DNA of 47,110 nucleotides from a virus, in the IMG/VR virus record IMGVR_UViG_3300020152_000029, positions 1 to 47,110 of that record; one strand, 5' to 3'. The notes under the pieces are model-generated. The model searched no databases, had not been told where the DNA came from, and saw only the letters and a list, made by a program, of their open reading frames with translations. Numbering within the stretch: position 1 is the stretch's first letter; each line of letters starts with the position of its first letter. The translations under genes were made by a program, and so were the position numbers. Below, one piece after another: positions 1 through 30,971 of the stretch.

Positions 1-3000
1 TGGCTTCACCCACCGCCTTCAGCATCACATCGCCGGATTCGTGACCCATGTTGTCGTTGACCCACTTCAGGGAATCGACATCCACGCTTACCTGAACAGG
101 CAGCTTTTCAGATTCGTCATAGGCGCGGCGGTTGCCGAGACCGGTCAAGTCATCGACCAGCAGCGCCTTGCGCATTTCCTCGGAAGACATCTGCTCGACA
201 CGCTTGCGCTGTTCGGTATTGGTGCGGCGGTCTGGTTCTGGAGCAGGATTTGTCAGTCCACGAATAGCATTATTCGCGGCAGCGTCATCCAGATCCATGT
301 AGTAGTAGTCTTCAACGGCCTCGTCAATCTGTGCCTCAGTAACGCCGGCCTTCACTGCCTGCGTGATTAGCTCACGGTCCAGACGGTCATACTTGTTGGC
401 GATTGCCATTTCCGGGTGGTCAATGGCGTTGTTGGCCATGAAGAATCCATACGAGAAACCCTCGGGCGTCGCGCTGCGTGCGTTCTTGGTTGCCAGACTC
501 TTGCCGCCGTACTTCTGGTGCATCTTGCTGCCCTCGGTAGGCTCAACCGGGGCAATAGGCAGGTCGGCATTGAATCGGCCCCACAGCAAGGTTTTCTTGG
601 TGTACGGGTCGCCAATATGATTCGGGTCGAATGACAGGCGCCATGGTGGCAAACTGCCCAATTCCTCGATACGGCCAACAGGGTTTTCAATCGCCCAGAT
701 GGCGGGCTTGAAGTGTTCAATGGTGGCCTGCGTCATGTGGACCAGCTTCACGCTGGCCGCGGTCCTGCCGTCCTTGTCCTTGGCCTTGAAGTGCCGGGCA
801 CCGCTTACCGCGAAGTCAGTACATGGGCATGCTGCGAGAATGGCATAGACATCATTGCCATCGAAGTGGCCGAACAGATCAGCGAAGTAGTCATGGCTGA
901 AGTTGTTGATGTCACCGATGTTGATTTCCTCACCGTTGACCTCGTTCATTTCCTCGGACTGGATATCAAAGCGATACACCTGATAACCAGCCTCTTCCCA
1001 AGGTTGTGACCACTTGCCGGTCAGGTCGAACAGCGACAGCACGATACGGTCACTATTGGCGCTGCGGCTCTTATCGTCCTTGCCCTGGGCCTTGGCATGC
1101 GCCTTCCACTCGGCAATGCGCGCCTTGGCTTCTTCCACGGTCATCCAGCCGTGGTCTTTGTGGTAGACCTTTACCTTGTCATTGAGGCGAACAATGTCGT
1201 TCTTGGCCGGCGCGTCGAACAGGTGGTGAACCTGCTCTCCACCCTCGAACATCGATTCGTGAGCCGCTTTGAACTCATTGACGATCTGACCTAGTTCGCG
1301 GTCATCAACGCCTAGGTCGGCATGCTCTGGGGCAGTGCTTTCCTTGGCTTTTATTGACTTGTTAATGCCTGCCAGATGCTCTTGAATAGGCACTGCCTCA
1401 TACTTGGCAGTATTGAGCGCATCCACCTTCTTCCGGTCGAAGGTTTCCATGACGACTTCGCCGGTTTCTTTGTTACTGATAACCCAACTGGATGAAGGCT
1501 TTACTTCTGAAGTAGGCTGACTGAACAGGTCACGCGCCCCACGCGCCGCGGCCTGATCAGCTGGCCGGTCACTGCCGGTCAGTACAAAATCATTAACTTG
1601 GGAATCTGCCTCGGCCTTCTTGCTTGCAGTCTCATCAGCCTTGCGCTGATCGGCCTTGGCTTGGTCGCGTGCGGCTAGGTCTTGTTGGCTTTGGGCCGAG
1701 AGGGTAAGTTCATCGCCTGCTGTCTGGACAGGAGGCGCACGAGTTTGAGGCGGCGTTCCTTCGGCATTGCCGCTATCTTCTGCATTGCCGGTGTCTGCAC
1801 CAGTTCCTTGGCTTTCGGCTGCAATTTCGATCTCTTCATTGAGTACCCTCGTGAGCTCTCTTTCAATTTCCGCCTGTGTCTTGCCGGCATTGGCGTCTGC
1901 TACCGTTACGTCTACCTGAGTAACAAACTCTGAACCGAAAATTCGGGTGGCTTCAGTGATGGCCAGATCAAGCGCAGCTTGCTCTTCATCGCTGAGCTCG
2001 TCGTACTCTGCATAATAAGCCTCTGACTTAGCCTGAGCAATGTTTTCAGTGCCTTCTGGGGTGTAGACATCAAACCCGCCCATAGCATCGGATAATGTGT
2101 CTCCGAATGCCGCAACCGTATCACCTACTGGATATCCAAGCTCCAGCAGCTCTTCGCGCATGGTATCCAGGTCTTTGCTGTTCGCCGAATTGTTGAAGCT
2201 GCGCATGATGCCGGAGCCGAATGACTTCATATCCTGCGGATCCAGACCCCATTCTTTCTTGGCCTGATCGAGATTGAGACCGCCGAGTTTGGCCATCGCA
2301 ACCAGAACATCATCCTTGGCGGTATTTACGCGTTTGTTCGCCTGAGCGCGTTCCTTGGCCAGACGACTTCGATTTTCCTTCGCCGCAAGCGCTTCCGGTG
2401 TATTGGTGGCCGCGTCCTGCAGTTGTGTCAACAAGTCATACAAAGACTCGTCACGCTTGAACATATTGGCCCAAGTCTTGAACTTGGATGCGCTGATGGG
2501 CTGACCGTCCATGAGCTTCTTGGCAGCGGCCAATGCGGCATCAAATGTACGTTCCTTGCCAAGCTGTGCAGCTGCGGCGCGACGTTTAACCAATGCCTCT
2601 ACGGTAGGGCGAAGGTCAAGCGATGGTGTTGGCGGAGAATCAGACTCGACAACAGGCTGCAAGAATGCTTTCTCGTCCTGCAGCATTTCCTTGAAGCGCG
2701 GCATCGGCACCGGCACAACACCACCCATGCCCTTCCAGTTCTTGTCGTAATTGCTTCGATACGCGGATTCAGCCTCTTCCTGGCTGGCATAGCCGATATA
2801 CACCTTTGGCTCATCGAACTGACCGGTAGCGGGATCGATCTGGTTCACCACGTAAACATCGCCGTCATAGTCTTCTGCTGTACCGGGCTTCACATTGACA
2901 TCGATATGTTCCTTGTCGGGTGCGCGAGCCTTCACGCCTTTGACATAGCCGTAGTGGCCATTCATCGTGCGCGACCATTCCTTGCCGGACTTATCCTTAC

Positions 3001-4432
3001 CAGAGCGGGTGCTGCCGTCCGGGTTCTCTACACTGATATTCAGACCGCCAACCTTGGCGCGGCCTACCTTGTAGTTACCTGCTTCCTTCTGGGCTGGCGT
3101 CGGTTCAGGAAGATCGTTCTGTGGAGATGTGGCGGCTTCATGCGCACCAGCTTCTAATGCATCGTTGGTGGAGTCTCCCGTTCCAGCAATCTGATTTTCC
3201 TCGCTGCCAGCTGCAGATGGTCCGGTAGAACCCTGACTTCCCCTGTCGGCGTCACTAGGGAGTAAAACGCTATCTCCTGTGCTTCTTGCAGGCTGATCAG
3301 CTTCAAGTCCACTGGTTTCTGTAGCCACTGCGGCAGGCTGTCCAGTTGTGCTGACATCTTGTTCCCCTCTCTTAATGCCGGCCGCTGCCTTGCGCGCTCC
3401 AATTTCTGCGTCCAGGGACTCGGTAAGAATCTCGAATTCGGTTTTTGGTGGAGCGCCGGTTGCTGTGGCTTGTTGAAGCAGTGCATCCTGATCAACAGCG
3501 GTAGCTGGCGCAGGTAGGTCGGCTGGCTGCGCTTGTTCCTCTGCCCTGCCGCGGAATGCACCGCCAGCGAATCCGCCCATGACTCCGCCAGTCAAGAGAC
3601 CCATGGCCGCGGCATTGTCTACTCCATCGAACATGGGGCGGTCCAGAGCGACATTGCTCCAGATCTGTTCCTGTACGGATTGCGGCAATTCCTCGAACAC
3701 ACCTTCAGATATGCCAGCTTCCAGAATGCGACGGCCAACGCCCTTCTTTGCCGCCTCTGCGGCTCCGCCGGCCATGATGGTATCGATATCATTGATGCCG
3801 AGTTTCTGTGCGAGCTTGCCGCCGGCTGCGCCGAGCACTGCGGTACCAACACCAGACCCTGCAGCGGCCAGGCTTTGCTTCGGAGTCAACAGACCGTCAT
3901 CGGTCTCCTGGCGGATTCCTTCAGCTGCAAGACCTGCACCCACTGCACCTTCACCAATGGCACCAGCAAGCACTGGAGACATGCCCGTAGCCGCCTTCAA
4001 GGCGCGAGCTGCCACACCCCCGGCACCCATGGCTGGCAACGATTCAACGACGGTATGAGCGATCGTGCTCGGGTTTTCTACCGCAGTCTTGACGGTATCA
4101 ATGAATCCATCAGCTTCGGCCACCTTGCGGTTGGCTTCTTTCTGTTCCGGGGAATAGTATTCATCGAGGAATTCTTTGGCCTGTTTCGGCTTGAAACCGA
4201 ACCCTTCTTCAGCCACCTTGCCGGCGACGCCACCGGTTGCTATATCTGCCAGACCTACAGCCATTTCAGGGACTGCAACGGCACCCTTCAATGCGGAGAT
4301 AGCGGTATCGCCTACGGCGCGGCGAACTACTCCGCTTTTCTCGTTATCCAGCGAGCCATCAAACGGTTTGAGTTGGGTTGTGGTGCTGACTTCAGGCGAA
4401 TCAAGCTCACCATCGAAAGGTTGAAGTGCCAA
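1..4432 (-). CDS. Giant polyvalent protein (InPase + DNA MTase-like + GGDEF-like), 3' end outside window
   Basis: The frame stays open for 1,477 codons and leaves the window without a stop, so the protein is partial. Domains in order: residues ~20-260 Gly/Ala-rich and helix-prone; ~453-586 a phage inorganic-pyrophosphatase-like (InPase) domain (GHYGYVKG at 492, EHIDVNV, FDEPKVYIGY); ~980-1020 a segment with TGEVVMETFD seen in many phage giant proteins; ~1128-1340 a cytosine-methyltransferase-like domain with ACPCTDFAVSGA (Cys1204) and IENPVGRI (~1248); from ~1420 the first half of a GGDEF-like fold, DDLTGLGNRR (1427) then DVDSLKWVNDNMGH. The start is TTG at 4432 with AGGAG 7 nt upstream. Polyvalent proteins are thought to be packaged and injected to protect or prime the incoming genome; that role is inferred here from domain make-up and from its place beside virion genes. 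Domain calls are by eye. Confidence 0.86.
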   Translation of the reverse strand, partial: MALQPFDGELDSPEVSTTTQLKPFDGSLDNEKSGVVRRAVGDTAISALKGAVAVPEMAVGLADIATGGVAGKVAEEGFGFKPKQAKEFLDEYYSPEQKEANRKVAEADGFIDTVKTAVENPSTIAHTVVESLPAMGAGGVAARALKAATGMSPVLAGAIGEGAVGAGLAAEGIRQETDDGLLTPKQSLAAAGSGVGTAVLGAAGGKLAQKLGINDIDTIMAGGAAEAAKKGVGRRILEAGISEGVFEELPQSVQEQIWSNVALDRPMFDGVDNAAAMGLLTGGVMGGFAGGAFRGRAEEQAQPADLPAPATAVDQDALLQQATATGAPPKTEFEILTESLDAEIGARKAAAGIKRGEQDVSTTGQPAAVATETSGLEADQPARSTGDSVLLPSDADRGSQGSTGPSAAGSEENQIAGTGDSTNDALEAGAHEAATSPQNDLPEPTPAQKEAGNYKVGRAKVGGLNISVENPDGSTRSGKDKSGKEWSRTMNGHYGYVKGVKARAPDKEHIDVNVKPGTAEDYDGDVYVVNQIDPATGQFDEPKVYIGYASQEEAESAYRSNYDKNWKGMGGVVPVPMPRFKEMLQDEKAFLQPVVESDSPPTPSLDLRPTVEALVKRRAAAAQLGKERTFDAALAAAKKLMDGQPISASKFKTWANMFKRDESLYDLLTQLQDAATNTPEALAAKENRSRLAKERAQANKRVNTAKDDVLVAMAKLGGLNLDQAKKEWGLDPQDMKSFGSGIMRSFNNSANSKDLDTMREELLELGYPVGDTVAAFGDTLSDAMGGFDVYTPEGTENIAQAKSEAYYAEYDELSDEEQAALDLAITEATRIFGSEFVTQVDVTVADANAGKTQAEIERELTRVLNEEIEIAAESQGTGADTGNAEDSGNAEGTPPQTRAPPVQTAGDELTLSAQSQQDLAARDQAKADQRKADETASKKAEADSQVNDFVLTGSDRPADQAAARGARDLFSQPTSEVKPSSSWVISNKETGEVVMETFDRKKVDALNTAKYEAVPIQEHLAGINKSIKAKESTAPEHADLGVDDRELGQIVNEFKAAHESMFEGGEQVHHLFDAPAKNDIVRLNDKVKVYHKDHGWMTVEEAKARIAEWKAHAKAQGKDDKSRSANSDRIVLSLFDLTGKWSQPWEEAGYQVYRFDIQSEEMNEVNGEEINIGDINNFSHDYFADLFGHFDGNDVYAILAACPCTDFAVSGARHFKAKDKDGRTAASVKLVHMTQATIEHFKPAIWAIENPVGRIEELGSLPPWRLSFDPNHIGDPYTKKTLLWGRFNADLPIAPVEPTEGSKMHQKYGGKSLATKNARSATPEGFSYGFFMANNAIDHPEMAIANKYDRLDRELITQAVKAGVTEAQIDEAVEDYYYMDLDDAAANNAIRGLTNPAPEPDRRTNTEQRKRVEQMSSEEMRKALLVDDLTGLGNRRAYDESEKLPVQVSVDVDSLKWVNDNMGHESGDVMLKAVGEA

Positions 4433-4456
4433 AATCTGTCTCCTAAAGAGAAAGCG

Positions 4457-4470
4457 ACGCCTCACGGCGT
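4457..4470 (-). repeat. Leader hairpin, copy 1 (GTGA loop)
   Basis: On the minus strand ACGCC-GTGA-GGCGT forms a 5-bp stem with a GNRA-type loop, 25 nt upstream of the polyvalent gene start and followed by CTTTCTCTTTAGGAG. It is one of five related intergenic hairpins in the late region. The spacing and the following pyrimidine-plus-SD stretch closely match the copy at 11660-11674. Confidence 0.55.
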
Positions 4471-4483: not shown

Positions 4484-5563
4484 TTACTGAATAAAGCGCT
4501 TGCCGTTCGCATCCTCGAATACCGGACGGCCCTGTGATGTGCCTACATATTTCATGCCGGGCGGCGGAGTTGGTGTCTGTGTTGCTGCCGCCTGACCAGG
4601 CTGATTGGTAGCCTCGCCAGTTCTGGAATTGAATGCCCCCAGATATACCGGGTTGCCAACATCATCCTTGCCCATGATGGGCTGGAACTTATCAACCTGA
4701 GCCTTGCCGGTGATTGCAGCAATGGCTGCGGCTGCGGCTTCTTTCTTGGCAGGATCCGTTTCCTTCAGATACTCATCCTGCAGCGTAGCCAGCCGGGCAT
4801 TGAGCGCCAGTTCGCTTTCCTTGGCTTGTACCGTGACGGCACTTTCTGCATCTTCACGATCGGCAGTTCTAAACCGGTCAGCCACCTGGCTTTCAGTATT
4901 GAGCACGGAGTTCCTTGTCGCTTGCTCCTGATTGCCCATATCGGATAACGTCTTCGCCCGATTTGCGATACCGCGTGCTACCAGTGCGCGTCCAACAGAG
5001 TTTTCGCCGGCCGTGAGGCTTTGCCCCTCTGTAGTGACAGATGAGCCGACTTCACTATTCAACAAACGCTGGCTCTCTCCAACAAGCGCTTTTGCCTGCG
5101 CACCATATCCGTCCATAGCTTCAGAATTGGCTGCAACCTGCGGTGCCATGCTGGTACCAGTAGATTGACCACCCACACTGATTTCCTTGCCGGTTGCGTT
5201 ATCGATCACGACACCAGTACCTGCAGGCATATCGGTTGCGTAACGACGACGGGCGCCGGCGGCAACTGGAGTTGCTGGTGCTGGACTATTAGGCTGAGCA
5301 ACCATGTCGGATGCAACGGTCGTGGCCGATGCTGCTGGCTTCATTTCGGCGGCACTGGCCGACGGGATAATATCGGCGCTGCGCTTGGTACCTGCTCCAA
5401 AAATGGCCTCATTCACCGAACCAGGCATTTTGTAGGGTTCCGCGACTGGCCCTTTAGCTTTCACGCCACCCACACCAATGCTCGCGGCGGCGGCATTGGG
5501 CATGAAGCTGTTCGAGCCATCCAGAAACACCTTCTTTTTTGGTTCTTCGGTGACCGTAGCCAT
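4484..5563 (-). CDS. Ala/Thr-rich virion protein, possible ejection protein
   Basis: About 359 aa, rich in Ala, Thr, Ser and Gln, with no recognisable enzyme motif. The N-terminal half is low complexity and probably extended. The middle (~residues 190-285) is strongly helical, with charged heptad-like stretches. The C-terminus is compact, with PPPGMKYVGTSQGRPVF, resembling short C-terminal modules of phage structural proteins. Two ATGs are adjacent; the second (5563) lies 6 nt from AGGAG and is preferred, the first only 3 nt. It is in one transcription unit between the 340-aa virion protein and the polyvalent gene, a place where podoviruses keep internal or ejected proteins. Function is inferred from position and composition only. 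Confidence 0.8.
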   Translation of the reverse strand: MATVTEEPKKKVFLDGSNSFMPNAAAASIGVGGVKAKGPVAEPYKMPGSVNEAIFGAGTKRSADIIPSASAAEMKPAASATTVASDMVAQPNSPAPATPVAAGARRRYATDMPAGTGVVIDNATGKEISVGGQSTGTSMAPQVAANSEAMDGYGAQAKALVGESQRLLNSEVGSSVTTEGQSLTAGENSVGRALVARGIANRAKTLSDMGNQEQATRNSVLNTESQVADRFRTADREDAESAVTVQAKESELALNARLATLQDEYLKETDPAKKEAAAAAIAAITGKAQVDKFQPIMGKDDVGNPVYLGAFNSRTGEATNQPGQAAATQTPTPPPGMKYVGTSQGRPVFEDANGKRFIQ

Positions 5564-5578
5564 CATGTTCTCCTAGAT

Positions 5579-6601
5579 TTAAGGCGCAGCACTGAGGCTG
5601 ACCATAGTGTTGCGGGTAGCAAGGGCACCAGCGGCCACCTTGGCCAGTGTATCTGCTGCCTGAATAGCGGTATTTGCCTGCACCTTGGCGATATCAATTT
5701 CCGAATCCATCATGCTGCTACGACCCTTTACGAACAGGTCCCAATAGCGAGCCTGCACGTTCTGGTTTTCAAGGCCAACGGATGACCTCAGCTTTTCCTC
5801 GTTGATCTTGGCGCTGTAGAGGCTCACGGCGTTCTCATACAGACTGGATTTAGCAGCAAGGATGGTCTTGGCATAGTCCACGGCCTGATTCGGCTGCACC
5901 ATGGCAATCTTGATGAAGTCACCCAGGGCGGCAACGAAGCCGGTTCTCAACGCCACGGCCTGCTGAATGGCGAACTTGGTGTTTTCATTTGCGATGTCGA
6001 AAGCCTTGAGTGCGATTTCTCGATTGATGGTAGTGAGCCGCTTGCTGGTTTCCTGCTGGTTGGCGGAAAGGGTGTAGTTCAATACGCCATTCGGCATGGA
6101 GAATCCGCTGGCGGCACTAGCTTCCCTTACGGACTGCTCGTTGCGCAGCGCTTCCTGAATCTCTCGATCGCGTGCCCGGTCATACAAGGCATTCTCGACC
6201 TCGATCGGCACGAAGCGTCCGCTGGTGATGGTCTCCACAATCCAGTCATCGGACGTGCTTCTGATTGCCTCGGAGATATCTGGGAAGAAGGTGTCCAGGT
6301 AGTTCTGGATCTGTGGCTGGATGTCGTTGTTGAGCTGGCCAAAGGCATAATCGAAAGCCTCGCGGACGTCAGATGAATAATCCGTGGTCGGCATCAGCGG
6401 CTTGGTGAGCCTGCTGCTGTCTATGGTTACGTCATCAGGGTTATATCCTGCGATGGACCAGTCGACATGCAGCCCTGATACGGCTGCTGCGGCCTCATTT
6501 AGAGCAGTGTCGGTAGCAGCAAGTGCATTGTCAGCCAGCTGCTTCGCATCGGCATACGCTGAGGATGCTTCTGTTGCCAGGGTGTCGATTGTCGTAGCCA
6601 T
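5579..6601 (-). CDS. Helical virion protein, possible internal/ejection protein
   Basis: 340 aa, Ala-rich and almost wholly alpha-helical by composition, with long amphipathic runs at residues ~165-330 (NREIALKAFDIANENTKF and after) that could form coiled coils. The N-terminal ~50 residues are Ala/Asp-rich. I do not recognise a catalytic motif. A strong GGAGG stands 5 nt before the ATG. It is the first gene after the promoter at 6625-6666, and the next two genes (Ala-rich protein, polyvalent giant) follow with no terminator between. It could be an inner-core or tail-needle-type component; the family is not certain. Confidence 0.82.
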   Translation of the reverse strand: MATTIDTLATEASSAYADAKQLADNALAATDTALNEAAAAVSGLHVDWSIAGYNPDDVTIDSSRLTKPLMPTTDYSSDVREAFDYAFGQLNNDIQPQIQNYLDTFFPDISEAIRSTSDDWIVETITSGRFVPIEVENALYDRARDREIQEALRNEQSVREASAASGFSMPNGVLNYTLSANQQETSKRLTTINREIALKAFDIANENTKFAIQQAVALRTGFVAALGDFIKIAMVQPNQAVDYAKTILAAKSSLYENAVSLYSAKINEEKLRSSVGLENQNVQARYWDLFVKGRSSMMDSEIDIAKVQANTAIQAADTLAKVAAGALATRNTMVSLSAAP

Positions 6602-11681: not shown

Positions 11682-12914
11682 TTACCTTGCTCTGCGCGTT
11701 ATTTCTGCTTCCGCATAGCTTCCCGCCTGAAGAATCGAACCCTCAGAATTGTTACCCACTACAACGAACTGCCTGATGCCGTCCTGCTCGCGAACCATGC
11801 TGGCAGCATTGATCATCAGACCTGGCGCCAGCGCCTTTTCTGCAAGAATCTCGGCAGCACCTGCTTCGTGTCCGATCACCGGACCGCGCTCAGACATCCA
11901 GATGTACTCATTCGTCCTCGGGATGATTCTGGCCGTGTTGGCTATGCCGCCGAACTCAAAGACCTCGGTTAACACCGGGCTCATGGTGCCAGCCTGGCCG
12001 ATAAAGCGTGTCTGGTCGGCGCAGACATACAGTCCGCCGCCTTTGGTACCAGCGATTACGGTTACTTCCGCTCCAAACTTGTAATAGTTCTTGCGACGGT
12101 CAACATGGTCATAGTCCAGCGCATTGGTCCGCCATACCACGGTTGGATCCGCAGCATCAATCATGAATATGCAGCCATTGGAATACGTGAGGCCGATAGC
12201 GAAAGGTGGCGGAGACTGGTATGCAGTACGCAGCTCGACACCTACAGGCATGGTCATGATGGTGGTGAACTGGTCCAGCGGGCTCAGTTCCTTGGCCAGA
12301 TAGGGCACTTCACCGTTTGGCGTGCTCATGTAGAGCCGTTTCTTTGCGACATCCGCCGAGTCAGGTACCGGCAATGCCGTAGTCGCAATGCCACCAACAG
12401 AATTCAGGGTGATGCTGGACAACAATGACGCGCCAGATTCGCGGCCGTCAGCCATTACGTAGGTCATTGCCAGATGATATGCGCCCGCCGTGAGCTGACC
12501 CGTAGTGAGCGATAAAGCGGGAGCACTTGCCGGCACCTCGACGCCCCAAGGAATAAGAGCACCATTCCTGATGATGGCCGAGGCTGTTGCGCAGCTCACA
12601 TAGATATCACCATTAAGCGCCAGGAATGATGCGCGATTTGCGCCGGCATTGAATGTGCCGATGATGGTCAGAGTGCCGTCAGCGTTGAACTTCTTGATCT
12701 TGTTGTCATGGACCAGGTATGCATTACCGGCGTTGTCATCCCACATGCTATGAGCGCCTCCCAGCTCAAGCACGCGCTGCCTTCCCTTCCGCATGCGCAG
12801 CTTGCCCGAATCGGTGATATCCATGTTCACGATACGACGTGCGGTATCGCTGCCAAGCTCGTTATCCTGGTGGATGTTATCCATGCCACGCTGGAATCCG
12901 TCGATGCGCGCCAT
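11682..12914 (-). CDS. Beta-propeller-like tail protein, P22 gp10-type candidate
   Basis: 410 aa, rich in short beta strands. The opening ARIDGFQRGMDNIHQDNEL, the RIVNMDITDSGKLRMRKGR segment and repeated blade-like units (HSMWDDNAGNAYLVHDNKI; RASFLALNGDIYVSC; FAIGLTYSNGCIFMID; GGLYVCADQTRFIG; NEYIWMSERGPVIG) fit the class of phage beta-propeller tail proteins to which the packaged-DNA stabilisation protein gp10 of P22 belongs. Length is slightly below P22 gp10. The gene follows the head-tail adaptor gene with a TAATG overlap, the order expected of podovirus neck genes. The structural class is fairly likely; identity with gp10 function is an inference. Confidence 0.75.
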   Translation of the reverse strand: MARIDGFQRGMDNIHQDNELGSDTARRIVNMDITDSGKLRMRKGRQRVLELGGAHSMWDDNAGNAYLVHDNKIKKFNADGTLTIIGTFNAGANRASFLALNGDIYVSCATASAIIRNGALIPWGVEVPASAPALSLTTGQLTAGAYHLAMTYVMADGRESGASLLSSITLNSVGGIATTALPVPDSADVAKKRLYMSTPNGEVPYLAKELSPLDQFTTIMTMPVGVELRTAYQSPPPFAIGLTYSNGCIFMIDAADPTVVWRTNALDYDHVDRRKNYYKFGAEVTVIAGTKGGGLYVCADQTRFIGQAGTMSPVLTEVFEFGGIANTARIIPRTNEYIWMSERGPVIGHEAGAAEILAEKALAPGLMINAASMVREQDGIRQFVVVGNNSEGSILQAGSYAEAEITRRAR

Positions 12915-13579
12915 TACCAGTACGCCTTAGTGCGATGTGGCAGGTTGGCATTCTCATTCCTGCGCTGGTTGGCATCGGGACGAGTACCGAAATACTCTTC
13001 GAACTTGGCCAGTGCCCTGGCGGACTTCTCAGGATTGAGTGTCTCAGAGTCTGGTTTCTCATAGGCGCGATGCAATACCCACTGAACTAGGTGCTTATGA
13101 TGGATTCGGTTGATTTCAGGACAGTCTTTTTCCGCCGCCATGGGTCTACGCGGTAGCCGGAAAACTTCGATATTCAGGGTGTAACTGCCATCCACCACAG
13201 AATCCAGCTCAAGTTTGGTGTCGTAGCGGATGATGCCTGTTGGCCTGCGGGATTCAGTACGCCAGTTCGGACGGATCCGGTCCAGCTCGTGACGGTCGGT
13301 AATGTCCAGCCGATACCTGACACCGGCAGCATCAGTGAGACTGACGTACTCGATTTCATGAATCAGTTCGTGCAATCGATACACGGAGCCATCGGCCTGA
13401 CTGACCGCAATCTGGCAGATGGCTGGATCTTCTTTCTCCGGTATCAGGTTGGCACGGAGACAGGCTTCTTCTTCTGCCTCGTTGAACCAGCCGATAACCT
13501 CGTCACTGCTCCAGAGATACGGTTTAACCGCATCGTCTGCGTCCACACGAAACGAGGCTTCGAGCTGAGAGAGGTTCAT
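12914..13579 (-). CDS. Head-tail adaptor (head completion) protein
   Basis: 221 aa. The N-terminus (LSQLEASFRVDADDAVKPY then WSSDEVIGWFNEAEEEACLRANL) matches the opening of the phage adaptor family that docks below the portal (DUF6682-like): a first helix, a Trp-anchored helix with acidic run, then a beta domain (VYRLHELIHEIEYVSLTDA), and a C-terminal helix with PEINRIHHKHLVQWVLHRAY and an FEEYFG end. It overlaps the RyR gene by ATGA and the propeller gene by TAATG. This position between head and tail genes supports the call. Confidence 0.8.
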   Translation of the reverse strand: MNLSQLEASFRVDADDAVKPYLWSSDEVIGWFNEAEEEACLRANLIPEKEDPAICQIAVSQADGSVYRLHELIHEIEYVSLTDAAGVRYRLDITDRHELDRIRPNWRTESRRPTGIIRYDTKLELDSVVDGSYTLNIEVFRLPRRPMAAEKDCPEINRIHHKHLVQWVLHRAYEKPDSETLNPEKSARALAKFEEYFGTRPDANQRRNENANLPHRTKAYW

Positions 13580-14464: not shown

Positions 14465-14947
14465 TTATGGGGTGCCAGTGGCAACGCCATACACCAGGAA
14501 GTCAAGCTGACCAGCTGAGGCGTGTGCTGCTACCTCATTGGTTACGATCAGCCATGCGTCTTTTGGCAGCGTTACCGGGGCAACACCGGTATTACCCTGA
14601 CGGGTACGGCCGGCAGTGGCCAGGCTCAGGCTGTTGTTGAAGTAGTCAGCATCCTGGGGCACGTTGGTATCATCGACGCCATCCACATACTCAAAGCCGA
14701 TGTCAGCAGTGATAGTGGCGGTGAAGGCATCGGAAATGATGGCCAGCGAGTCCTGGATGCGGAAGCCGGCAGGGATGATGCCGAGGCGCACTTTGTCGGT
14801 TGCCCCTACAGCGGCTGTGGTATCGCTATCAACGAACACACCGGATGCGTTGGTTTTGAACTGGTAGTCCAGTACGGAGTTATTGCCGTACGGAACACCG
14901 CCATGTTGCTGCAAGTTGCGAGCACGTTTCTTGGTTACGGTAGCCAT
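14465..14947 (-). CDS. Head decoration or capsid-associated protein (160 aa)
   Basis: 160 aa, beta-rich, with an N-terminal basic arm (TVTKKRARNLQQHGG) and a compact domain containing DKVRLGIIPAGFRIQDSLAIISDAF and WLIVTNEVAAHASAGQLDFLVYG. This resembles small decoration-type or stabilising proteins that sit next to the major capsid gene in many phages. There is an AGGAG 6 nt before the ATG. It is followed by a strong terminator and lies just downstream of the capsid gene. The role is inferred from position and size. Confidence 0.78.
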   Translation of the reverse strand: MATVTKKRARNLQQHGGVPYGNNSVLDYQFKTNASGVFVDSDTTAAVGATDKVRLGIIPAGFRIQDSLAIISDAFTATITADIGFEYVDGVDDTNVPQDADYFNNSLSLATAGRTRQGNTGVAPVTLPKDAWLIVTNEVAAHASAGQLDFLVYGVATGTP

Positions 14948-15028: not shown

Positions 15029-16309
15029 TTACCGGCCTGCGATCTTGACGGCGGTATCGATCGCCATCACACCGAAGTCGGTGTATTGGGACTCGTCGCC
15101 GTGGTCGATCAGGAAGCGAACCTTGCTCTTGCCGCCAATCATGCCGATCAGGACTTCCAGCACGTTGTCATGGTCGAGCAGCTTTTCGCTCCAGAAGTAC
15201 GGGTTACCGGTCTTGGTGTTCTTGCCCAAGGCTTCTGCCAGCGCCTGGCCACCCAACAGCAGGGCACGATCAACCGCATGCGTGGTGCCAAAGGATGCTG
15301 GTACCAGGTCGGCAGAGGTTTCATCAGTGCTGGTGTAGGAAGCGCAGTAGCGCAGACTGTCACCGGCATAGAAGCGGATGGGTTTAGGCATCTTCACAAT
15401 CAAGATACCGTTCCACAGACCAGCCTCGCCCATAAAGAGGGGGTTGTTCTTGGCCAACTGAGCACGCGCCATTGCGTTGGATTGCAGGGTGCGGAAGTTG
15501 GTGGACTGTACGAACGAGGTATATTGCTCGCTGGAGACCAGCAGGACGCGCATAGGCGAGTCATCTGCCATCTGGTCATCCTCGTACTTCACTGGTGGAG
15601 GTGGCAATGGCATGCCATCCAGTAGGGTGCGGATACCATCTACAACATCGGCGTTCAGCACGTCGGTGGTAGCGATGGTGATTTCGTTTCCGGATGCCTG
15701 AATATGCTCGATACCGGAACCGGTCGACATATAGTGACGGTTCTTGGTAGGAGCCTTGATGCTGTTCACGCAGATGGTTGCGAAATCAGCGTCAGATGCG
15801 AGAGGCAGAGCCCACTCGATATCGTTGGCAAAACCGCGGGCACCAGCCAGGTGAGCGATGGATAACTGGTCATCCAGACGGCTCATGTAGTTCATGCCAA
15901 GCGCACGCGCCAGCTTACGCAGTTGGTGTGGGGTGCGTTGTTGGGTCATCTTTCCGCCGGCGCTGATTGGGTAACGGCATTGGTCGATGCGCAGACTGTC
16001 TTGCGAGAAGCTCATCTTCTTGCCGAGACCTTCAGCAGTACGGTCACCCATGATTGGCTTACCGCCCAATGGGTTGATCAGGTCAAAGGTGATTTCATCA
16101 CCGGCAACCTTGGTCAAGTCCATGCATCGAACAATCGGCAGATCATTCGAGGACTGGAAGCGCAGCTTTGATTCTGCATCAGACTGTTGCGGCAACTTGC
16201 CGGTCAGTCGGTTAAGGGTAGTCGGACGCTGCATGTTCGAAGCGAACAAGCCAGCGGACTGAATCTGTACGGCCTGTGCTGAACCGTATGGAATGCTTGT
16301 AGCAGACAT
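15029..16309 (-). CDS. Major capsid protein, N4-gp56 family
   Basis: 426 aa. It matches the N4-gp56/DUF4043 major capsid family: KVAGDEITFDLINPLGGKPI near residue 66, the MSFSQDSLRIDQCRYPISAGGKM segment, a long helix QQRTPHQLRKLARALGMNYMSRLDD, and a C-terminal domain with LLLGGQALAEALGK. It builds the HK97-fold procapsid shell around the scaffold. An AAGGAG stands before ATG at 16309, and the leader carries a hairpin of the repeated late type. Scaffold is upstream and decoration downstream, the normal order. Confidence 0.93.
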   Translation of the reverse strand: MSATSIPYGSAQAVQIQSAGLFASNMQRPTTLNRLTGKLPQQSDAESKLRFQSSNDLPIVRCMDLTKVAGDEITFDLINPLGGKPIMGDRTAEGLGKKMSFSQDSLRIDQCRYPISAGGKMTQQRTPHQLRKLARALGMNYMSRLDDQLSIAHLAGARGFANDIEWALPLASDADFATICVNSIKAPTKNRHYMSTGSGIEHIQASGNEITIATTDVLNADVVDGIRTLLDGMPLPPPPVKYEDDQMADDSPMRVLLVSSEQYTSFVQSTNFRTLQSNAMARAQLAKNNPLFMGEAGLWNGILIVKMPKPIRFYAGDSLRYCASYTSTDETSADLVPASFGTTHAVDRALLLGGQALAEALGKNTKTGNPYFWSEKLLDHDNVLEVLIGMIGGKSKVRFLIDHGDESQYTDFGVMAIDTAVKIAGR

Positions 16310-18005: not shown

Positions 18006-20075
18006 CTAAGTGGTCGCTGCTGTTTCTTTCTTGGGGGTGTCGGCTGGCTTGTCATCTGCCTTGTCGGCTTCGTGCGCATTGGTTTCTGCGTCGAGCCAGC
18101 GGGCTTCTGCGGTGATGCCCTGATTACGTAGCGTTCCCTTGACCTGCAATTCCTTCAATTCAAGATCGCGCCTCTTGAGATCGATATTGGCCTTGAGTAA
18201 TGCGGCCTCCACGGCCTCATCAATGAGCTGCTGGATCTGTTCGGGCGTCTGCTTGGCCTCGGCTTCGCGGATGGCCATGATGATGTCCTTCTTGTCCGGC
18301 ACATCCATGAGGTTAAGCAGGTATGGCAGCATGAGAATCTGGTATTGCGGCGGCATGGACTTGTAGGCTTCGCTCATGGCGGCGAGCTGCTGCGCCCGGA
18401 ATGTCGGCGTGCTTGGTACATCCTCGAGCACAACCTTGAGCTTGGTGCGCTCAACATCGTTATTCAGGTAGCGGTAACCGTCAGGGTGAATAGTCGGCTG
18501 ATTGAGTGCAATGGAGCGGTCTTCCTTGATGCCATTGCCAGGAATCAGAACTTCCTGCTCCTGCCCGATCATATCTTCGATGATGAGCGACACCAGCAAG
18601 TCGCCTACCTCGGCACGGCCGTACTTGAAGTTGTCATTGATATCGGCAAGGGTCTGGTTGGACTGCTCCACCAGCCCAGAGATAGCGACACCAGACTTGG
18701 CCTGGCCATCCTGTCCCATGAAGCTGTTATAAATGCCGCCGGTACGCTTGATGCCTTCGCGGGCATCAGCAAGACGCTGCGCCTGTTCAGCGTTGAGCTC
18801 GAAGTTATTCTGAACCTCGAACGTGGCGCCCTTCTTGGCCATTTCTTTCTGGTCCAGGATGATATCTGCATCAAGTCGCCCGACTTCACGCCTGAATTGC
18901 TCGTCGGTGCCCTTCACGACTCCATCGGTTCGCACCACACGCACGGCAGACAAGCCCCATTGCATCTTGGAGATACGGGCATTCACTTCGTCCTGCAGGT
19001 ACATCATGCCGCGGATCAGGCCATACGGAATGCCGGTGCGGTCTTCGCGTTTGCCCCAGAAGGCAACATAGGGGAATTTATTGTGGCGGTATGGTGTGGG
19101 TGAATCGTCCAGCTTGTGCGGACCCATGTAATACGCACGGCGCACCTTGCCGATGATGGCCCATTGCGGCTTGATGACACCAGATGCCACAGCCATCAGG
19201 TGGTGTCCGTTCTTGTCGTCGTACTCAACAACACGACCGTCAGGTGACTTCAGGACCATGACGCGCACATAGTTGCGGTACCAGACTTCAAACAGGCAGA
19301 CGCGGTTACTGTATGTATCGCGCCATTCCTGTTCTTCGATGGACCAGCCGCGCTCATCATTAAGCGACATGGCCAGCCCGGTGGAATTACCGCCATCCAG
19401 CGTGATCTGGCTATCGAAATTCCATGCGGTCCAGTTGGTGCCGGCATACCTGATGAGTTCCGCCTTGTCCGGGAACATCAGCTCAGCTAGTTTGCGGTCG
19501 GTCCAGCGGCGGCGCACCAGGTAGCGAGCATCAGAGAGGTCCGGCTTCTTGGCCAGGAAGTCCCAGAACATTTCATTACGGTGAACGAACTCGGTACGGT
19601 ATGGATATTTGAATGGGTCGGTATTGCGGGCTACTTCTACCCAACCGATGCCAACCTTGATCTGGCTGGCATAGGCTTCGGAGCACGAACGGTCGGCATC
19701 TGATTTGGATTCGGCCTGCTTCAGCTTGAAGCTGATGGCCTCGGCTACTTCATCGCCGCCTTTGTCACTATCGGGCACCACGCGCCAGTCGGTTCGCGAT
19801 ACCGCTTCCATGCCCAACACTGCGTCAATCGTGGGGCCAATCAGCGGCTCGATGGCCGGTGGCATGCCTATATCGGCTTGTTTGCGCAGTATCTCGGAGT
19901 CCAGCTGGTTGCCGTCGTAATACTCGGCTTCCTTGTCCGCTTTGGATCTCCAGCGCGGCTGCTCATGAATCTCTTCCATCCATGTGGTAAACATGGACAG
20001 CGTGCATTCGCCATCATCGTTAGCTTGGGGTGTGGCGTAGCCGGACTGGCCAGCCATAACGGCGGTGTGTTCCAT
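18006..20075 (-). CDS. Portal protein, P22 type
   Basis: 689 aa. It has the length and signatures of a P22-like portal: the N-terminal SKADKEAEYYDGNQLD, a VEVARNTDPFKYPY loop, RAYYMGPHKLDDSPTPYRHNKFPYVAFWGKREDRTGIPYGLIRGMMYLQDEVN spread over residues ~310-365, then a helical crown with QIQQLIDEAVEAALLKANIDLKRRDLELKELQ. It forms the dodecameric ring through which DNA is packaged and ejected. The start (ATG, 20075) lies after GGCAGGGAAT. Transcription is likely from the promoter at 20119-20159. Confidence 0.93.
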   Translation of the reverse strand: MEHTAVMAGQSGYATPQANDDGECTLSMFTTWMEEIHEQPRWRSKADKEAEYYDGNQLDSEILRKQADIGMPPAIEPLIGPTIDAVLGMEAVSRTDWRVVPDSDKGGDEVAEAISFKLKQAESKSDADRSCSEAYASQIKVGIGWVEVARNTDPFKYPYRTEFVHRNEMFWDFLAKKPDLSDARYLVRRRWTDRKLAELMFPDKAELIRYAGTNWTAWNFDSQITLDGGNSTGLAMSLNDERGWSIEEQEWRDTYSNRVCLFEVWYRNYVRVMVLKSPDGRVVEYDDKNGHHLMAVASGVIKPQWAIIGKVRRAYYMGPHKLDDSPTPYRHNKFPYVAFWGKREDRTGIPYGLIRGMMYLQDEVNARISKMQWGLSAVRVVRTDGVVKGTDEQFRREVGRLDADIILDQKEMAKKGATFEVQNNFELNAEQAQRLADAREGIKRTGGIYNSFMGQDGQAKSGVAISGLVEQSNQTLADINDNFKYGRAEVGDLLVSLIIEDMIGQEQEVLIPGNGIKEDRSIALNQPTIHPDGYRYLNNDVERTKLKVVLEDVPSTPTFRAQQLAAMSEAYKSMPPQYQILMLPYLLNLMDVPDKKDIIMAIREAEAKQTPEQIQQLIDEAVEAALLKANIDLKRRDLELKELQVKGTLRNQGITAEARWLDAETNAHEADKADDKPADTPKKETAATT

Positions 20076-20346: not shown

Positions 20347-21915
20347 CTATCTCCAGCTCGGTGGCGGTCTGTTGCCCATGGTTGATGAGTAACCGGACAT
20401 AGTGAGCATTCCGAGTTCCTTTGCCTGTGCCCATTGTCTCAGAGCATCAGCACCTTCGCTATTTCCATCTAGCTTCTCTGGCTCGTTCAGGTATCTGCCA
20501 AACTTGGTGTTGAACTTCCGCTTGTAGTTGTCCAGCCTCTTGAGCCCATCGGCACACAGCATCTCGTCAAAGTAAGCAGACGGGAAGTGTTTCTTGGTCA
20601 GGAAAATGCCTTGGTTGATATCAGCAATGCGCGGCACGATCTCGATATTCTTCATGCCGAGGTCTTCCATCTGTTCCTTGATGGATTTGTTCTCATCATT
20701 GGATAAGCGCTCATGATCCGCGTCGTGCGGGAAAAAATGCTTATTCCAGATATATCCCTTGTCCTGGAGCTGGCCATAATAATGCTGCAGGTCTGCGCCA
20801 TGCTCTTCGTAGTAGCCAATAAACCTGTCTTCCAGTCCAACCGTCTGGTGGAACCAGATAGCGCAACCATCACTATTACCGATATCCCAGAATGTATTGA
20901 CCGGCACGCCGATGATTGGGATACGCAATATACGGCCATTCTTTCTCGCTGCAGTCATCTGGTCAGTGAAGTAGCGACCTTCGCTTGATTGCTCAAACGC
21001 CTCTTGTGGAGTGCTCGGGTATTCTTGCCACATAAGAACCTCGTCCCCTGAAAAGTCTGTTTGTTTGGTTTTGACGTGCCATGCGCGCTGCTCCGGCCTC
21101 AGTACCGTCTTCATCTTTGCTTCAATACTGTCGAAGTATTTGTGTTCCTTGGCAGTGACAACAACCAGTGATGGATCCAGCACGTATTCCGGGGCTTCCC
21201 ACCATGCATAGAAGTGGAACCGATAATCCTTCTTGGTTATCGGCGTCTTCATGTCCTCGCGCTTGATAGATACCTGTGTCATGTCATGGAAATAACCCTC
21301 GGCGCCTTCGGCTGTGCTCTCAACAATCAATATGCCGGACTGTGGGCAAGCCGGTATTGATCCTGTAACAACTTCCTTGGCCTTCTGTGGGAACTTGGCG
21401 CATATCTTCCCGAACTCGGAGATATGCAAGCGATGTGGCGTGCCACCACGATATGAGGTCGCGACGCGGATAGAGCTGTTGTTGTGCTTGAAGTGAATTT
21501 CAGTGGCGCTGTTACCCTTCAGCGGCATCATGGATTTAACGAATTCAGGCAGATTGTCGTAGGCGAACTTCACCTTGTCCCGCAAGATTTCGGCGGCAAC
21601 CTCACGGTGCTGCGCCACGATACCGCAGCGGACATTGTCATTGAACAGCGCATAGTCCAGCCACATGATGGCAACCAGCGTAGTGAACCCTAATTGACGG
21701 GCCTTCAGGATGATATTGCGATGCCACATGCGCTTGATGAAGCGTCTTTGAGCTCGGTTCGGCTTGAATGGAAGCACCAGGTTATCGTCAGGCGTTTCCC
21801 CTTTGACAATGATCTTATACAGCTCACCAGAGAACAGCCGCCACAACGGATCAGACAGCTTTGCTATCAGCTCGGCTGTTGCAACCGCTTGCAGCTCAGA
21901 ATCTGGCGCTCCCAT
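20347..21915 (-). CDS. terL: Large terminase subunit (ATPase-nuclease)
   Basis: 522 aa, P22-like terminase. The N-terminal ATPase shows the atypical Walker A ILKARQLGFTTL (residues ~69-80) and the later LHISEFGKI, a Walker B-like segment. The C-terminal nuclease shows GVPVNTFWDIGNSDGCAIWF, then a DHERLSNDENKSIKEQMED region and GKYFD-like downstream strands typical of the RNase H-fold nuclease. It cuts concatemeric DNA and pumps it into the head. TAATG coupling joins it to terS. The C-terminal tail (SGYSSTMGNRPPPSWR) is extended and probably contacts the portal. Confidence 0.94.
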   Translation of the reverse strand: MGAPDSELQAVATAELIAKLSDPLWRLFSGELYKIIVKGETPDDNLVLPFKPNRAQRRFIKRMWHRNIILKARQLGFTTLVAIMWLDYALFNDNVRCGIVAQHREVAAEILRDKVKFAYDNLPEFVKSMMPLKGNSATEIHFKHNNSSIRVATSYRGGTPHRLHISEFGKICAKFPQKAKEVVTGSIPACPQSGILIVESTAEGAEGYFHDMTQVSIKREDMKTPITKKDYRFHFYAWWEAPEYVLDPSLVVVTAKEHKYFDSIEAKMKTVLRPEQRAWHVKTKQTDFSGDEVLMWQEYPSTPQEAFEQSSEGRYFTDQMTAARKNGRILRIPIIGVPVNTFWDIGNSDGCAIWFHQTVGLEDRFIGYYEEHGADLQHYYGQLQDKGYIWNKHFFPHDADHERLSNDENKSIKEQMEDLGMKNIEIVPRIADINQGIFLTKKHFPSAYFDEMLCADGLKRLDNYKRKFNTKFGRYLNEPEKLDGNSEGADALRQWAQAKELGMLTMSGYSSTMGNRPPPSWR

Positions 21916-26970: not shown

Positions 26971-27807
26971 TCAATCCCCGCAAAAACATTCAATAGATTC
27001 GTCGGAAAACATATCGGCCTGATCCTGGGTAAAGCTCATCATGTCTTGGTAACTAGGGCGGTCCTGTCTGAACCTTGCGCCTTGGCCTGTGGCCTGCCCG
27101 GATGACTGCACAAGTGTTTCCATCCTTGCCCACCACACGGCACGTTCTGGCTTCTCTGCAATCAGCGATACAACTTGATTGCCGCCCTTCAGAAAGCACA
27201 GGTCACAGTTACCGTGCATGGTCTTGCCATTGATATTTGGAAGCCGTAAATCGAAGGCTTGGGATTTCCAGAACTGGCCGACATGGCTGGCGGTTATGCC
27301 GGACTCAGCAAGCGGAGAACGCTTCTCTTCGTGCTTGCCGTAATCTTGATTCTTCAGCTTGGCTACACGTCGCGGCTCGTCGGCTCTGATGCCAAGGAAT
27401 GATTGCCACTCTGTCCAACCCAATGACTTCAGATAGCGATGGATTGACCGCACCTTCATTTCTACGGTACAGAAGCGGCTTACGGGGTTTGGAAGGAACT
27501 GCCGTTTACGTATGAGTGCCTCAAATGGCTCGCCGTTACGGCTAGCTGTCGTGTAATCTACGACCTCAAATTTCTGCTCGCTGTCGCGGTACTCAATCCA
27601 TGCTATAGGCACGTCCCACCGGGTTGAGCATTCCTGCACAAAATCCAGCGTGGCTTCCTCTTCCTTGCCGGTATTGGCAAAGCAGACAATGGCCTCGTCA
27701 GGCAGTCCGCCATTCGCCTCAAGTACCTGATGCAGCATGTAGGCACTCGTCCTGCCACCGGAGAAGCTGATGCAAGTTGGTTCGGTGATGAGGTATGTCG
27801 ACCTCAT
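26971..27807 (-). CDS. PAPS-reductase/DndC-like sulfur or ATP-pyrophosphatase protein
   Basis: 278 aa from ATG 27807, which overlaps the DUF1367-like gene by ATGA. The PP-loop is SFSGGRTSAYMLHQ (residues ~14-27), followed by IVCFANTGKEEEATLDFV, WIEYRD, and a C-terminal HGNCDLCFLKGG pair of cysteines, the hallmarks of phage PAPS-reductase-like proteins. Substrates may be a sulfur carrier (DNA or tRNA thiolation, phosphorothioation) or a nucleotide. It is unclear which. In phages the class is often linked to DNA modification or to host metabolism; no DndDE partner is seen here. Confidence 0.83.
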   Translation of the reverse strand: MRSTYLITEPTCISFSGGRTSAYMLHQVLEANGGLPDEAIVCFANTGKEEEATLDFVQECSTRWDVPIAWIEYRDSEQKFEVVDYTTASRNGEPFEALIRKRQFLPNPVSRFCTVEMKVRSIHRYLKSLGWTEWQSFLGIRADEPRRVAKLKNQDYGKHEEKRSPLAESGITASHVGQFWKSQAFDLRLPNINGKTMHGNCDLCFLKGGNQVVSLIAEKPERAVWWARMETLVQSSGQATGQGARFRQDRPSYQDMMSFTQDQADMFSDESIECFCGD

Positions 27808-28325
27808 TCGCCAAAACTCCCGAGAATCGTCTCCATCATTTCCGAGCGCATGGCTTCGTCCAGGTGCGCCCACAGGGTTTTTTGTGCATGCTCAGTGCGC
27901 AGGAACTGAATCATGTCGCTATGCAGCTGTTCCATTCCGCCCTGTTCCAGCTGTCCGTAGCTCATGGACTTGGCTACCGGGATAACGCCGCCCCTTGGAC
28001 CAGGGAACCAGTCAACGAAACCGGCGCCGATCTTCAGCCAGATGCGGAATGCCTCGAAGTTATCGAATTTCTCCTGGGCCTCGAACAGCTGCTGCTCCAT
28101 CGCCATGTGCTTGCGGTGATACCAGCCGAGCCGCTCCTGATGGGTCTTGATCTCCACCATTTCGCCGGGCTCGAGCTTGAACAGACGGTTCATGAAGCGA
28201 CGCCATTTCTTTTGCGCACTCTCGCCCAAGCCATCGATATGGCCGAATAGAACACGGCGTGCAGCTTCCTTCTCCTGCTCGGAAACGGCGATGTCATGCT
28301 TGCGGACGAGATTGATTTCAGCCAT
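27804..28325 (-). CDS. DUF1367-like phage protein
   Basis: 173 aa from ATG 28325, which overlaps the upstream stop (TAATG). It shows the pattern expected of DUF1367 phage proteins: INLVRKHDIAVSEQEK, a helical middle (KKWRRFMNRLFKL; QERLGWYHRKHMAMEQQLFEAQE with the conserved HRK) and a C-terminal strand-helix region with SMSYGQLEQGGMEQLHSDMIQFL. The function is unknown; it recurs in phage recombination and Nin-type regions. Confidence is moderate because the match is by recall of short blocks only. Confidence 0.75.
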   Translation of the reverse strand: MAEINLVRKHDIAVSEQEKEAARRVLFGHIDGLGESAQKKWRRFMNRLFKLEPGEMVEIKTHQERLGWYHRKHMAMEQQLFEAQEKFDNFEAFRIWLKIGAGFVDWFPGPRGGVIPVAKSMSYGQLEQGGMEQLHSDMIQFLRTEHAQKTLWAHLDEAMRSEMMETILGSFGE

Positions 28326-30731: not shown

Positions 30732-30971
30732 CTAGTTGCTCTTCAACTCTTCCTGATCCACGTAACGCTCCGGATAGAGAATTTCCAGTTCGGAGATATC
30801 CCCACCCTTTTCCTTGTAGAACCTGGAGAGCTTTTCTGCGACATCAGGGGTTACCCCCTGTTTACGTCGCTCGATACGTGAGAGGTTTCCGGGATCGAGT
30901 CCAACCGGCACGGCAACATCATGCAAAGTGAACTTGAGCTTTTTCCTAACGATTTGGAGAGGTGTAGCCAT
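30732..30971 (-). CDS. cro: Cro-type helix-turn-helix repressor
   Basis: 79 aa. TPLQIVRKKLKFTLHDVAVPVGLDPGNLSRIERRKQG is a classical HTH of the XRE family (recognition helix PGNLSRIERR), followed by a helical tail with DVAEKLSRFYKEKGGD. The recognition helix shares NLSR(I/F)ER with CI, and the genes diverge. No ribosome site is seen: the -10 (30978-30983) places the start of transcription at or next to this ATG, so the message may be leaderless. The identification as Cro rests on small size, divergent position and leftward operon. Confidence 0.85.
   Translation of the reverse strand: MATPLQIVRKKLKFTLHDVAVPVGLDPGNLSRIERRKQGVTPDVAEKLSRFYKEKGGDISELEILYPERYVDQEELKSN

What the first reader, a model, noticed from the sequence alone, without database searches (positions are those of the whole stretch)
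1..4432. Packaged-type giant protein joining InPase, cytosine-MTase-like and GGDEF-like domains
Seen: one open frame of at least 1,477 codons next to virion genes, with an InPase block (~453-586), a PC/ENP methyltransferase-like block (~1128-1340) and DLTGLGNRR plus DVDSLKWVNDNMGH at the edge. Known: polyvalent proteins carry several effector domains injected with phage DNA. Inferred: this one could both mark or shield DNA and touch nucleotide signalling at entry. The combination is one I have not seen described.
Basis: partly seen in the sequence, partly recalled or inferred. Interest (0 to 1): 0.86.

Follow-up and report, generated by a model that had tools for sequence, protein, structure and literature searches.

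The report
Giant injected phage protein with effectors
The end of this phage contig holds a large piece of one giant protein, probably carried in the virus particle and pushed into the host with the DNA, that strings together three enzyme-like parts (a pyrophosphatase, a DNA-cytosine-methylase-like part and the start of a signal-molecule maker); the parts and the general kind are already known, and only this exact trio is new among the records searched.

Summary
Minus-strand frame 2-4432 (TTG start, 1,477 codons, cut by the contig end) carries InPase (PF18823, E 2.5e-47), a C5-cytosine-methyltransferase-like domain (PHROG 757, E 1e-42) and the first ~75 residues of a GGDEF domain (PHROG 5594, E 7.5e-15). 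It lies beyond the virion genes of a short-tailed phage. It belongs to the published polyvalent proteins; InPase and GGDEF in that class are in print (Iyer 2017). In relatives the modules are shuffled: InPase in 13 of 23 methylase records and 9 of 37 GGDEF records; this methylase and GGDEF together in 0 of these 60 records. One relative (L002) joins InPase and GGDEF to another methylase, so the trio is new only with the C5 type. The GGDEF part belongs to a compact lineage, found mostly on viral contigs, that reads SGDEF in 27 of 33 complete members and is modelled with high confidence as a diguanylate-cyclase fold. Best explanation: an ejection-type protein delivering nucleotide- and DNA-acting enzymes at entry. 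Packaging is inferred; a 4,515-aa giant in the same place is in virions of phage JC1. The methylase-GGDEF junction rests on one contig, 235 bases from its end. A new member of a known kind.

The parts
2..4432 (-). giant polyvalent-protein gene, 1,477 codons from a TTG start, 3' end beyond the contig; longest frame 2-4465
3563..4348 (-). N-terminal Ala/Gly-rich module (residues 40-301); candidate ejection/translocation part (inference)
   Evidence: PHROG 30335 E 4e-110, vRNAP PHROG 2206 E 2e-7; found in 8 related loci after removing repeats, near the frame's N-terminus in 7, internal in L037, and in none of the GGDEF giants; direct comparison with N4 gp50 not convincing
2678..3094 (-). InPase domain (residues 458-596)
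   Evidence: PF18823 E 2.5e-47; conserved residues
1892..2608 (-). conserved middle region of unknown function (residues 620-858), shared with other giants
   Evidence: no Pfam match at E <= 1
1355..1507 (-). short conserved block (residues 987-1037), PHROG 25603
374..1087 (-). C5-cytosine-methyltransferase-like domain (residues 1127-1364)
   Evidence: PHROG 757 E 1e-42; motif residues 21 of 21; low-confidence model leaning to C5 methylases
251..373 (-). helical tail after the methylase (residues 1365-1405), kept in many relatives
2..235 (-). first 78 residues (from 1411) of the compact GGDEF module, cut by the contig end before the GGDEF motif
4484..6601 (-). two genes (360 and 340 aa) directly upstream, same strand; the 340-aa protein (5579-6601) has relatives upstream of the giant in L009, L010, L028 and L031
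11682..21915 (-). virion and packaging genes: head closure (11682-12914), virion structural (12914-13579, 14465-14947), major head protein (15029-16309), portal (18006-20075), large terminase (20347-21915)

Best explanation
The gene encodes a polyvalent protein of a short-tailed phage. Its place after the virion genes, and that of its relatives, make it most likely an ejection-type protein, packaged in a few copies and moved into the host with or before the DNA. Along the chain sit exchangeable effector domains that would act in the first minutes: an InPase that removes pyrophosphate or splits a nucleotide-like pyrophosphate bond, a compact C5-cytosine-methyltransferase-like domain that probably acts on phage or host DNA, and a GGDEF domain of a phage lineage that probably makes c-di-GMP (or else binds GTP or c-di-GMP). 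Shown here: frame, domains, conserved residues of each family, modular exchange, virion gene context. Inferred: packaging, injection, each activity, and what the signal or mark does.
For: Domains and frame. Terminase, portal, major head protein, head closure and structural genes on the same strand. InPase-bearing frames in the relatives run from 1,392 to 7,177 aa with the same modules in other orders. Of the 40 phage records listed out of 1,382 with a match, 4 call the feature structural protein, 2 internal virion polymerase and most hypothetical protein; in phage 8P it directly follows virion-type genes. JC1 gp69 (4,515 aa, DarB-like, at the end of the virion module) was found in CsCl-purified virions with 51 unique peptides (PMC9144972, passages); PHROG 10089 'DarB-like antirestriction' matches the window protein at 440-950, E 5.8e-48. 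An InPase of this family is part of a solved phage portal, 9b41, E 4.9e-39. InPase E40, R47, Y65, D77, D82, D111, K114 and methylase P88-C89 and E134-N135 are each 21 of 21. GGDEF: SGDEF 27, GGDEF 4, other 2 of 33 complete members; model pLDDT 94.4; best PDB folds are the diguanylate cyclases SiaD and PleD; its profile matches 48 distinct PDB sequences at E <= 0.001, led by the cyclase DosC. Median dN/dS 0.28 (InPase), 0.11 (methylase), 0.34 (GGDEF) over 51 of 66, 56 of 66 and 37 of 55 unsaturated, non-independent pairs from 12, 12 and 11 chosen rows. The SGDEF enzyme ECA3270 is reported active (PMC3974145, passages).
Against: No proteomics of this phage. The protein is incomplete: the GGDEF motif and all that follows are unseen. 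The methylase-GGDEF junction is 235 bases from the contig end and found no second witness: 0 matches for an exact junction pattern, an exact edge pattern and one degenerate core pattern; an assembly chimera is not excluded. The N-terminal module was not found in any of the GGDEF giants, and its similarity to the N4 virion polymerase is weak (PHROG E 2e-7; hhalign probability 25% over 43 columns, E 0.0008 for one comparison, hmmsearch nothing). Only 11 of 35 records searched, the window included, have a portal of the window's family, 6 of them strongly, so the GGDEF giants come from varied phages or from fragments. Serine at the first motif place inactivated VCA0965. The window's InPase has Glu where 18 of 21 have Asp. 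A few copies of a slow enzyme may make little signal (general knowledge).
Confidence: 0.75

Rival explanations
1. The trio is a contig-end artefact: the last 235 bases come from another phage's GGDEF-bearing giant gene joined during metagenome assembly; the real protein carries InPase and the methylase only.
For: The junction lies at the contig edge; this methylase and GGDEF are together in 0 of 23 and 0 of 37 records; no support for the junction.
Against: The join is in frame, with the N-terminal lead of the GGDEF module, where relatives switch to other sequence after the methylase's helical tail. G+C of 1-232 is 0.582 against 0.528 to 0.559 next to it, not decisive. Shuffling of modules is usual in these genes.
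Confidence: 0.12
2. The GGDEF part is not a cyclase but a degenerate GTP- or c-di-GMP-binding or structural domain.
For: SGDEF in 27 of 33 and His for the usual Arg before the motif in 29 of 33; serine at that place inactivated VCA0965.
Against: The D-x-D-S-L-K-W-x-N-D and G-D blocks and the acidic motif residues are kept (roles recalled); ECA3270 with SGDEF is active; four members keep GGDEF.
Confidence: 0.35
3. The protein is made and used only inside the infected cell and is not injected.
For: No proteomics for this phage; PHROG 10089 is filed under moron and host takeover.
Against: Position after the virion genes; JC1 gp69 in virions; InPase inside a solved portal.
Confidence: 0.12
4. InPase and GGDEF form one functional pair, the InPase pulling c-di-GMP synthesis by removing its pyrophosphate.
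For: Cyclase chemistry releases pyrophosphate (general knowledge); InPase lies within about 100 residues of GGDEF in several relatives, e.g. L042, L050, L076.
Against: InPase is commoner with the methylase (13 of 23 records) than with GGDEF (9 of 37), Fisher p 0.015 the other way, records not independent.
Confidence: 0.1

Closest known systems
Polyvalent proteins (Iyer et al. 2017, PMC5512222)
   Same: Giant multi-domain phage proteins, likely packaged, with InPase and GGDEF among their domains and a GGDEF + adenine-methyltransferase + other enzymes example from an Acetonema longum prophage (passages and section 6)
   Different: Here a C5-cytosine-type methylase; 'cytosine' occurs in that main text once, in the reference list. 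Its supplementary files were not seen
JC1 gp69 / Bcep22 DarB-like giant proteins
   Same: Several-thousand-residue protein at the end of a podovirus virion module, in virions by mass spectrometry (passages)
   Different: Its table lists a HepA-type helicase match; sequences not compared directly, as the Bcep22 accessions I tried were not held
N4 gp50 virion RNA polymerase
   Same: Giant ejected protein encoded next to two smaller virion proteins; 4 +/- 1 copies per virion (PMC12633501, preprint, passages)
   Different: No polymerase match in the window part; N-terminal similarity weak
Small phage GGDEF proteins of Vojvodinavirus and Pseudomonas phages
   Same: Same lineage by tblastn, 78 records, E down to 9e-15; hyperbiofilm lysogens reported (PMC8471281, passages)
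   Different: In Bordetella phage CN1 a small separate gene upstream of the terminase genes, not part of a giant
Phage DNA methyltransferases of PHROG 757 and tblastn relatives
   Same: Same domain; 1,312 phage records match the window segment
   Different: In the 30 listed rows only that of phage 8P is called structural protein; sizes of the other genes were not checked
L002 giant (IMG/VR contig)
   Same: GGDEF and InPase in one frame with a DNA methylase
   Different: The methylase is of Eco57I type with helicase domains, not the C5 type

Membership tests
Polyvalent proteins | several unrelated effector domains in one phage or conjugative-element polypeptide | tested here: met
   InPase, methylase-like and GGDEF in one frame
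Polyvalent proteins | domains shared and shuffled with other such proteins | tested here: met
   known polyvalent domains (ART-PolyVal, LPD1, LPD38) in the relative L009
Polyvalent proteins | packaged in the virion and delivered early (phage subset) | not testable with these tools
   only context and relatives
InPase of polyvalent type (PF18823) | profile match above cut-off | tested here: met
   160.5 bits against 26.8
InPase of polyvalent type (PF18823) | four conserved acidic active-site residues | tested here: inconclusive
   E40, D77, D82, D111 21 of 21, but the window has Glu at 79 where 18 of 21 have Asp; which four are meant was not mapped on a solved enzyme
C5-cytosine DNA methyltransferase | catalytic Pro-Cys and Glu-Asn motifs | tested here: met
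   P88, C89, E134, N135 21 of 21; motif names recalled
C5-cytosine DNA methyltransferase | Pfam PF00145 above curated cut-off | tested here: not met
   19.9 bits against 22; PHROG 757 strong; so called C5-methylase-like and not filed as a full member
C5-cytosine DNA methyltransferase | target-recognition domain between motifs VIII and IX | tested here: inconclusive
   33 residues between the KKT..WG block and the RSxTPEGF block; model there has pLDDT under 50
GGDEF / diguanylate cyclase | GGDEF fold | tested here: inconclusive
   window holds the first third only; relative L050 is modelled as a GGDEF fold, pLDDT 94.4, and matches cyclases
GGDEF / diguanylate cyclase | GG(D/E)EF motif and cyclase activity | not testable with these tools
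   motif lies beyond the contig; relatives SGDEF 27, GGDEF 4, other 2 of 33
N4-type ejected virion RNA polymerase | RNA polymerase domain | tested here: inconclusive
   none matched in the 1,488 residues seen; the rest of the protein is not held

The most novel reading that the evidence does not exclude
Phages inject an active diguanylate cyclase: a compact, mostly phage-borne SGDEF lineage, without the usual feedback-inhibition site (RxxD at the usual spacing in 1 of 33), rides inside giant ejection proteins and raises c-di-GMP before any phage gene is read; in this phage it shares one chain with a DNA-cytosine-modifying domain and a pyrophosphatase, so that one molecule marks DNA and changes host signalling at entry.
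Probability: 0.35. Interest if true: 0.72.

Novelty: new member of a known kind. Interest (0 to 1): 0.43.

Why it matters
If such proteins deliver a working diguanylate cyclase, phages can set a global host signal without transcription or translation, which would bear on receptor display, motility and nucleotide-based defence at the moment of entry; the abstract of PMC8669472 reports that c-di-GMP controls N4 infection of E. coli. Iyer 2017 called RelA/SpoT and GGDEF 'not very widespread' in this class; here 33 complete members of one GGDEF lineage were aligned, 32 from viral contigs and one from a genome bin, giving ready material for tests. The exact trio in the window is one of many shuffles and matters less than the lineage.

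Tried and rejected
Homology of the N-terminal module with N4 gp50: hhalign probability 25% over 43 columns, hmmsearch no hit; kept only as a weak lead from PHROG 2206. I had noted early that this module is always N-terminal; the survey does not bear that out (L037 has it inside, GGDEF giants lack it). InPase as dedicated partner of GGDEF: the counts point the other way. A second genome with this methylase and GGDEF together: 0 of 23 and 0 of 37 records; controls matched in 4 of 5 records in each, the fifth being the expected negative. Many records are fragments and several are near-identical pairs; L077-L083 (seven bacterial loci) were not searched for the methylase. Extending the contig to the left: three patterns, 0 matches. 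Methylase model of low confidence (pLDDT 61); Foldseek had no match below 1e-3, best 3g7u at 2.1e-3; VIA-align best Z 8.7 tied between 3g7u and an RNA methyltransferase: the fold says methyltransferase and only leans to C5 type. The methylase profile found nothing convincing among PDB sequences. Paper searches: 'phage-encoded diguanylate cyclase' 0 papers; 'diguanylate cyclase' + 'ejection protein' + 'phage' 0 papers; 'polyvalent protein' + 'cytosine' + 'phage' 6 papers, of which I saw passages of PMC5512222, PMC7824862 and PMC9206674 and the listing of the other three. Of the 116 papers and the 24 I saw the 20 listed each. Passages of PMC10386132, PMC4936722 and PMC9206674 gave no virion evidence for this family of giants.

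Rows dropped before counts: 15 loci on contigs already held, rows identical to another, and matches under 70% of the profile (among them the small phage proteins L074, L075 and bacterial L078-L080, L082, L083). One search's GGDEF counts include two bacterial rows (L077, L081); those do not. The RxxD script caught an earlier GGDEL in L053; read by eye that row has no RxxD either. The finding that L002 joins InPase, GGDEF and another methylase lowered my interest score slightly.

Full report
WHAT IS THERE. The minus strand of window 2-4465 is one frame of 1,488 codons that runs off the contig end. The window is a whole virus record of 47,110 bases, so the rest of the gene is not held. Residue numbers below count from 4465.

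DOMAINS. InPase (PF18823) at 458-596, E 2.5e-47. Methylase-like at 1134-1357 by PHROG 757, E 1e-42; PF00145 at E 5.6e-4 is below its cut-off. GGDEF from about 1416 to the edge: Pfam E 8.3e-5, just below cut-off; PHROG 5594 E 7.5e-15; NCBIfam cyclase models E down to 1.7e-7. Six relatives were scanned whole; the five that carry GGDEF (L002, L003, L005, L014, L018) pass the Pfam cut-off.

SURROUNDINGS. Upstream on the same strand lie terminase, portal, major head protein, virion structural and head-closure genes, then genes of 844, 340 and 360 aa, then the giant. The 340-aa protein has relatives upstream of the giant in L009, L010, L028 and L031; the other window virion genes found no relative in the fetched loci at E <= 1e-4. 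A gene at 30921-31712 reads by eye like a phage repressor, which hints at a temperate phage; not searched. In N4 the giant virion polymerase gp50 likewise lies next to two smaller virion proteins.

RELATIVES. The edge and methylase segments gave 18 and 20 viral loci, 31 distinct contigs. The GGDEF alignment gave 36 viral loci, 8 of them on contigs already held, and 8 loci in genome contigs, found through a single peptide pattern. Of those 8 only L076, from a Phyllobacteriaceae metagenome bin, is a giant with InPase and GGDEF; the other seven frames of 264 to 1,024 aa carry GGDEF alone among the modules searched. Local profiles show the same modules in many giants in different orders; two viral GGDEF frames are shorter, 665 and 968 aa, and L074 and L075 are small separate proteins. 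After the methylase's helical tail relatives go on differently; in L031 InPase follows, here GGDEF. Whole-record searches found GGDEF in 0 of 23 methylase records and the methylase in 0 of 37 GGDEF records; controls behaved. InPase is in 13 of the 23 and 9 of the 37. L002 joins GGDEF, InPase and an Eco57I-type methylase with helicase parts. So the trio with the C5-type methylase is unique among these 60 records, while a trio with another methylase exists. A portal of the window's family is in 11 of 35 records searched, the window included, 6 of them at E below 1e-50.

THE GGDEF LINEAGE. The 33 complete members aligned share D-x-D-S-L-K-W-x-N-D with few exceptions, and the motif reads SGDEF in 27, GGDEF in 4, SGDEL and SGDEY in one each. 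RxxD at its usual spacing is in 1 of 33. The stretch between the NRR block and the next strand is 11 residues shorter than in SiaD as aligned by HMMER. AlphaFold2 on L050 with its relatives gives pLDDT 94.4; the best PDB matches are SiaD and PleD, E about 2e-9, TM about 0.6. Relatives in cultured phages include small separate genes of Vojvodinavirus and Pseudomonas phages, several already annotated as diguanylate cyclase; lysogens of such a Bordetella phage were reported to make more biofilm (PMC8471281, passages). SGDEF can be active (ECA3270), but serine at that place inactivated VCA0965 (PMC3974145, passages). Activity is likely but open.

THE METHYLASE AND INPASE PARTS. The methylase part keeps Pro-Cys and Glu-Asn in 21 of 21; median dN/dS 0.11 over unsaturated pairs of 12 chosen rows. 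There is little room for a target-recognition domain, and the model is weak (pLDDT 61), leaning to C5 methylases. InPase keeps E40, R47, Y65, D77, D82, D111, K114 in 21 of 21; the window has Glu where 18 of 21 have Asp. Its only strong solved relative is part of a phage portal, 9b41.

PACKAGING. Not tested for this phage. For it speak the gene position, annotation of some relatives as structural protein or internal virion polymerase, 6 of the 40 listed, the portal-fused InPase, and phage JC1, whose 4,515-aa gp69 at the end of the virion module was found in CsCl-purified virions with 51 unique peptides (PMC9144972, passages). N4 gp50 is present in 4 +/- 1 copies and is proposed to stay with the ejectosome (PMC12633501, preprint, passages); by analogy several copies would let GGDEF domains pair. 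Homology of the N-terminal modules is weak.

KNOWN OR NEW. Iyer 2017 (PMC5512222; passages and the whole of section 6 read) defined polyvalent proteins, described InPase and GGDEF in them, and gave a GGDEF + adenine-methyltransferase example. 'Cytosine' occurs in its main text once, in the reference list. Its supplements were not seen. In the listings and passages from the searches I met neither this trio nor the SGDEF phage lineage. I file the finding as a new member of a known kind.

WEAK POINTS. The junction that makes the trio lies 235 bases from a contig end and has no second witness (near-identical records may be left out by the tool). The GGDEF motif is not in the window. No activity and no virion presence is shown.

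Noticed in passing
31714-32823 (+): 369-aa protein with a type IV pilin-like N-terminal methylation motif (PF07963, E 2.4e-6, above cut-off) and weak T2SS-G similarity, next to a repressor-like gene; unusual on a phage contig.
   Followed up: no
38016-39920 (+): A second, separate C5-cytosine methyltransferase (PF00145 E 6.1e-15, PHROG 116) whose middle holds a repeated 'VADPR' type unit (read by eye), followed after a 128-aa frame by a DUF5131 gene at 40300-41247.
   Followed up: no
42265-42918 (+): Small protein with a C-terminal DnaJ domain (PF00226 E 1.4e-6).
   Followed up: no
26971-27873 (-): PAPS-reductase-like gene (PF01507 E 8e-8).
   Followed up: no
34453-37187 (+): RecT-like annealing protein and RecE/YqaJ-like exonuclease pair.
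   Followed up: no
L011, L022, L027, L029, L030, N-terminal regions: The N-terminal module matches in two pieces in these five relatives, as if an insertion or repeat split it.
   Followed up: no
L039:4287-8462 and L039:8300-15271: The giant gene is broken within the methylase part into two overlapping frames; may be a frameshift or a sequencing error.
   Followed up: no
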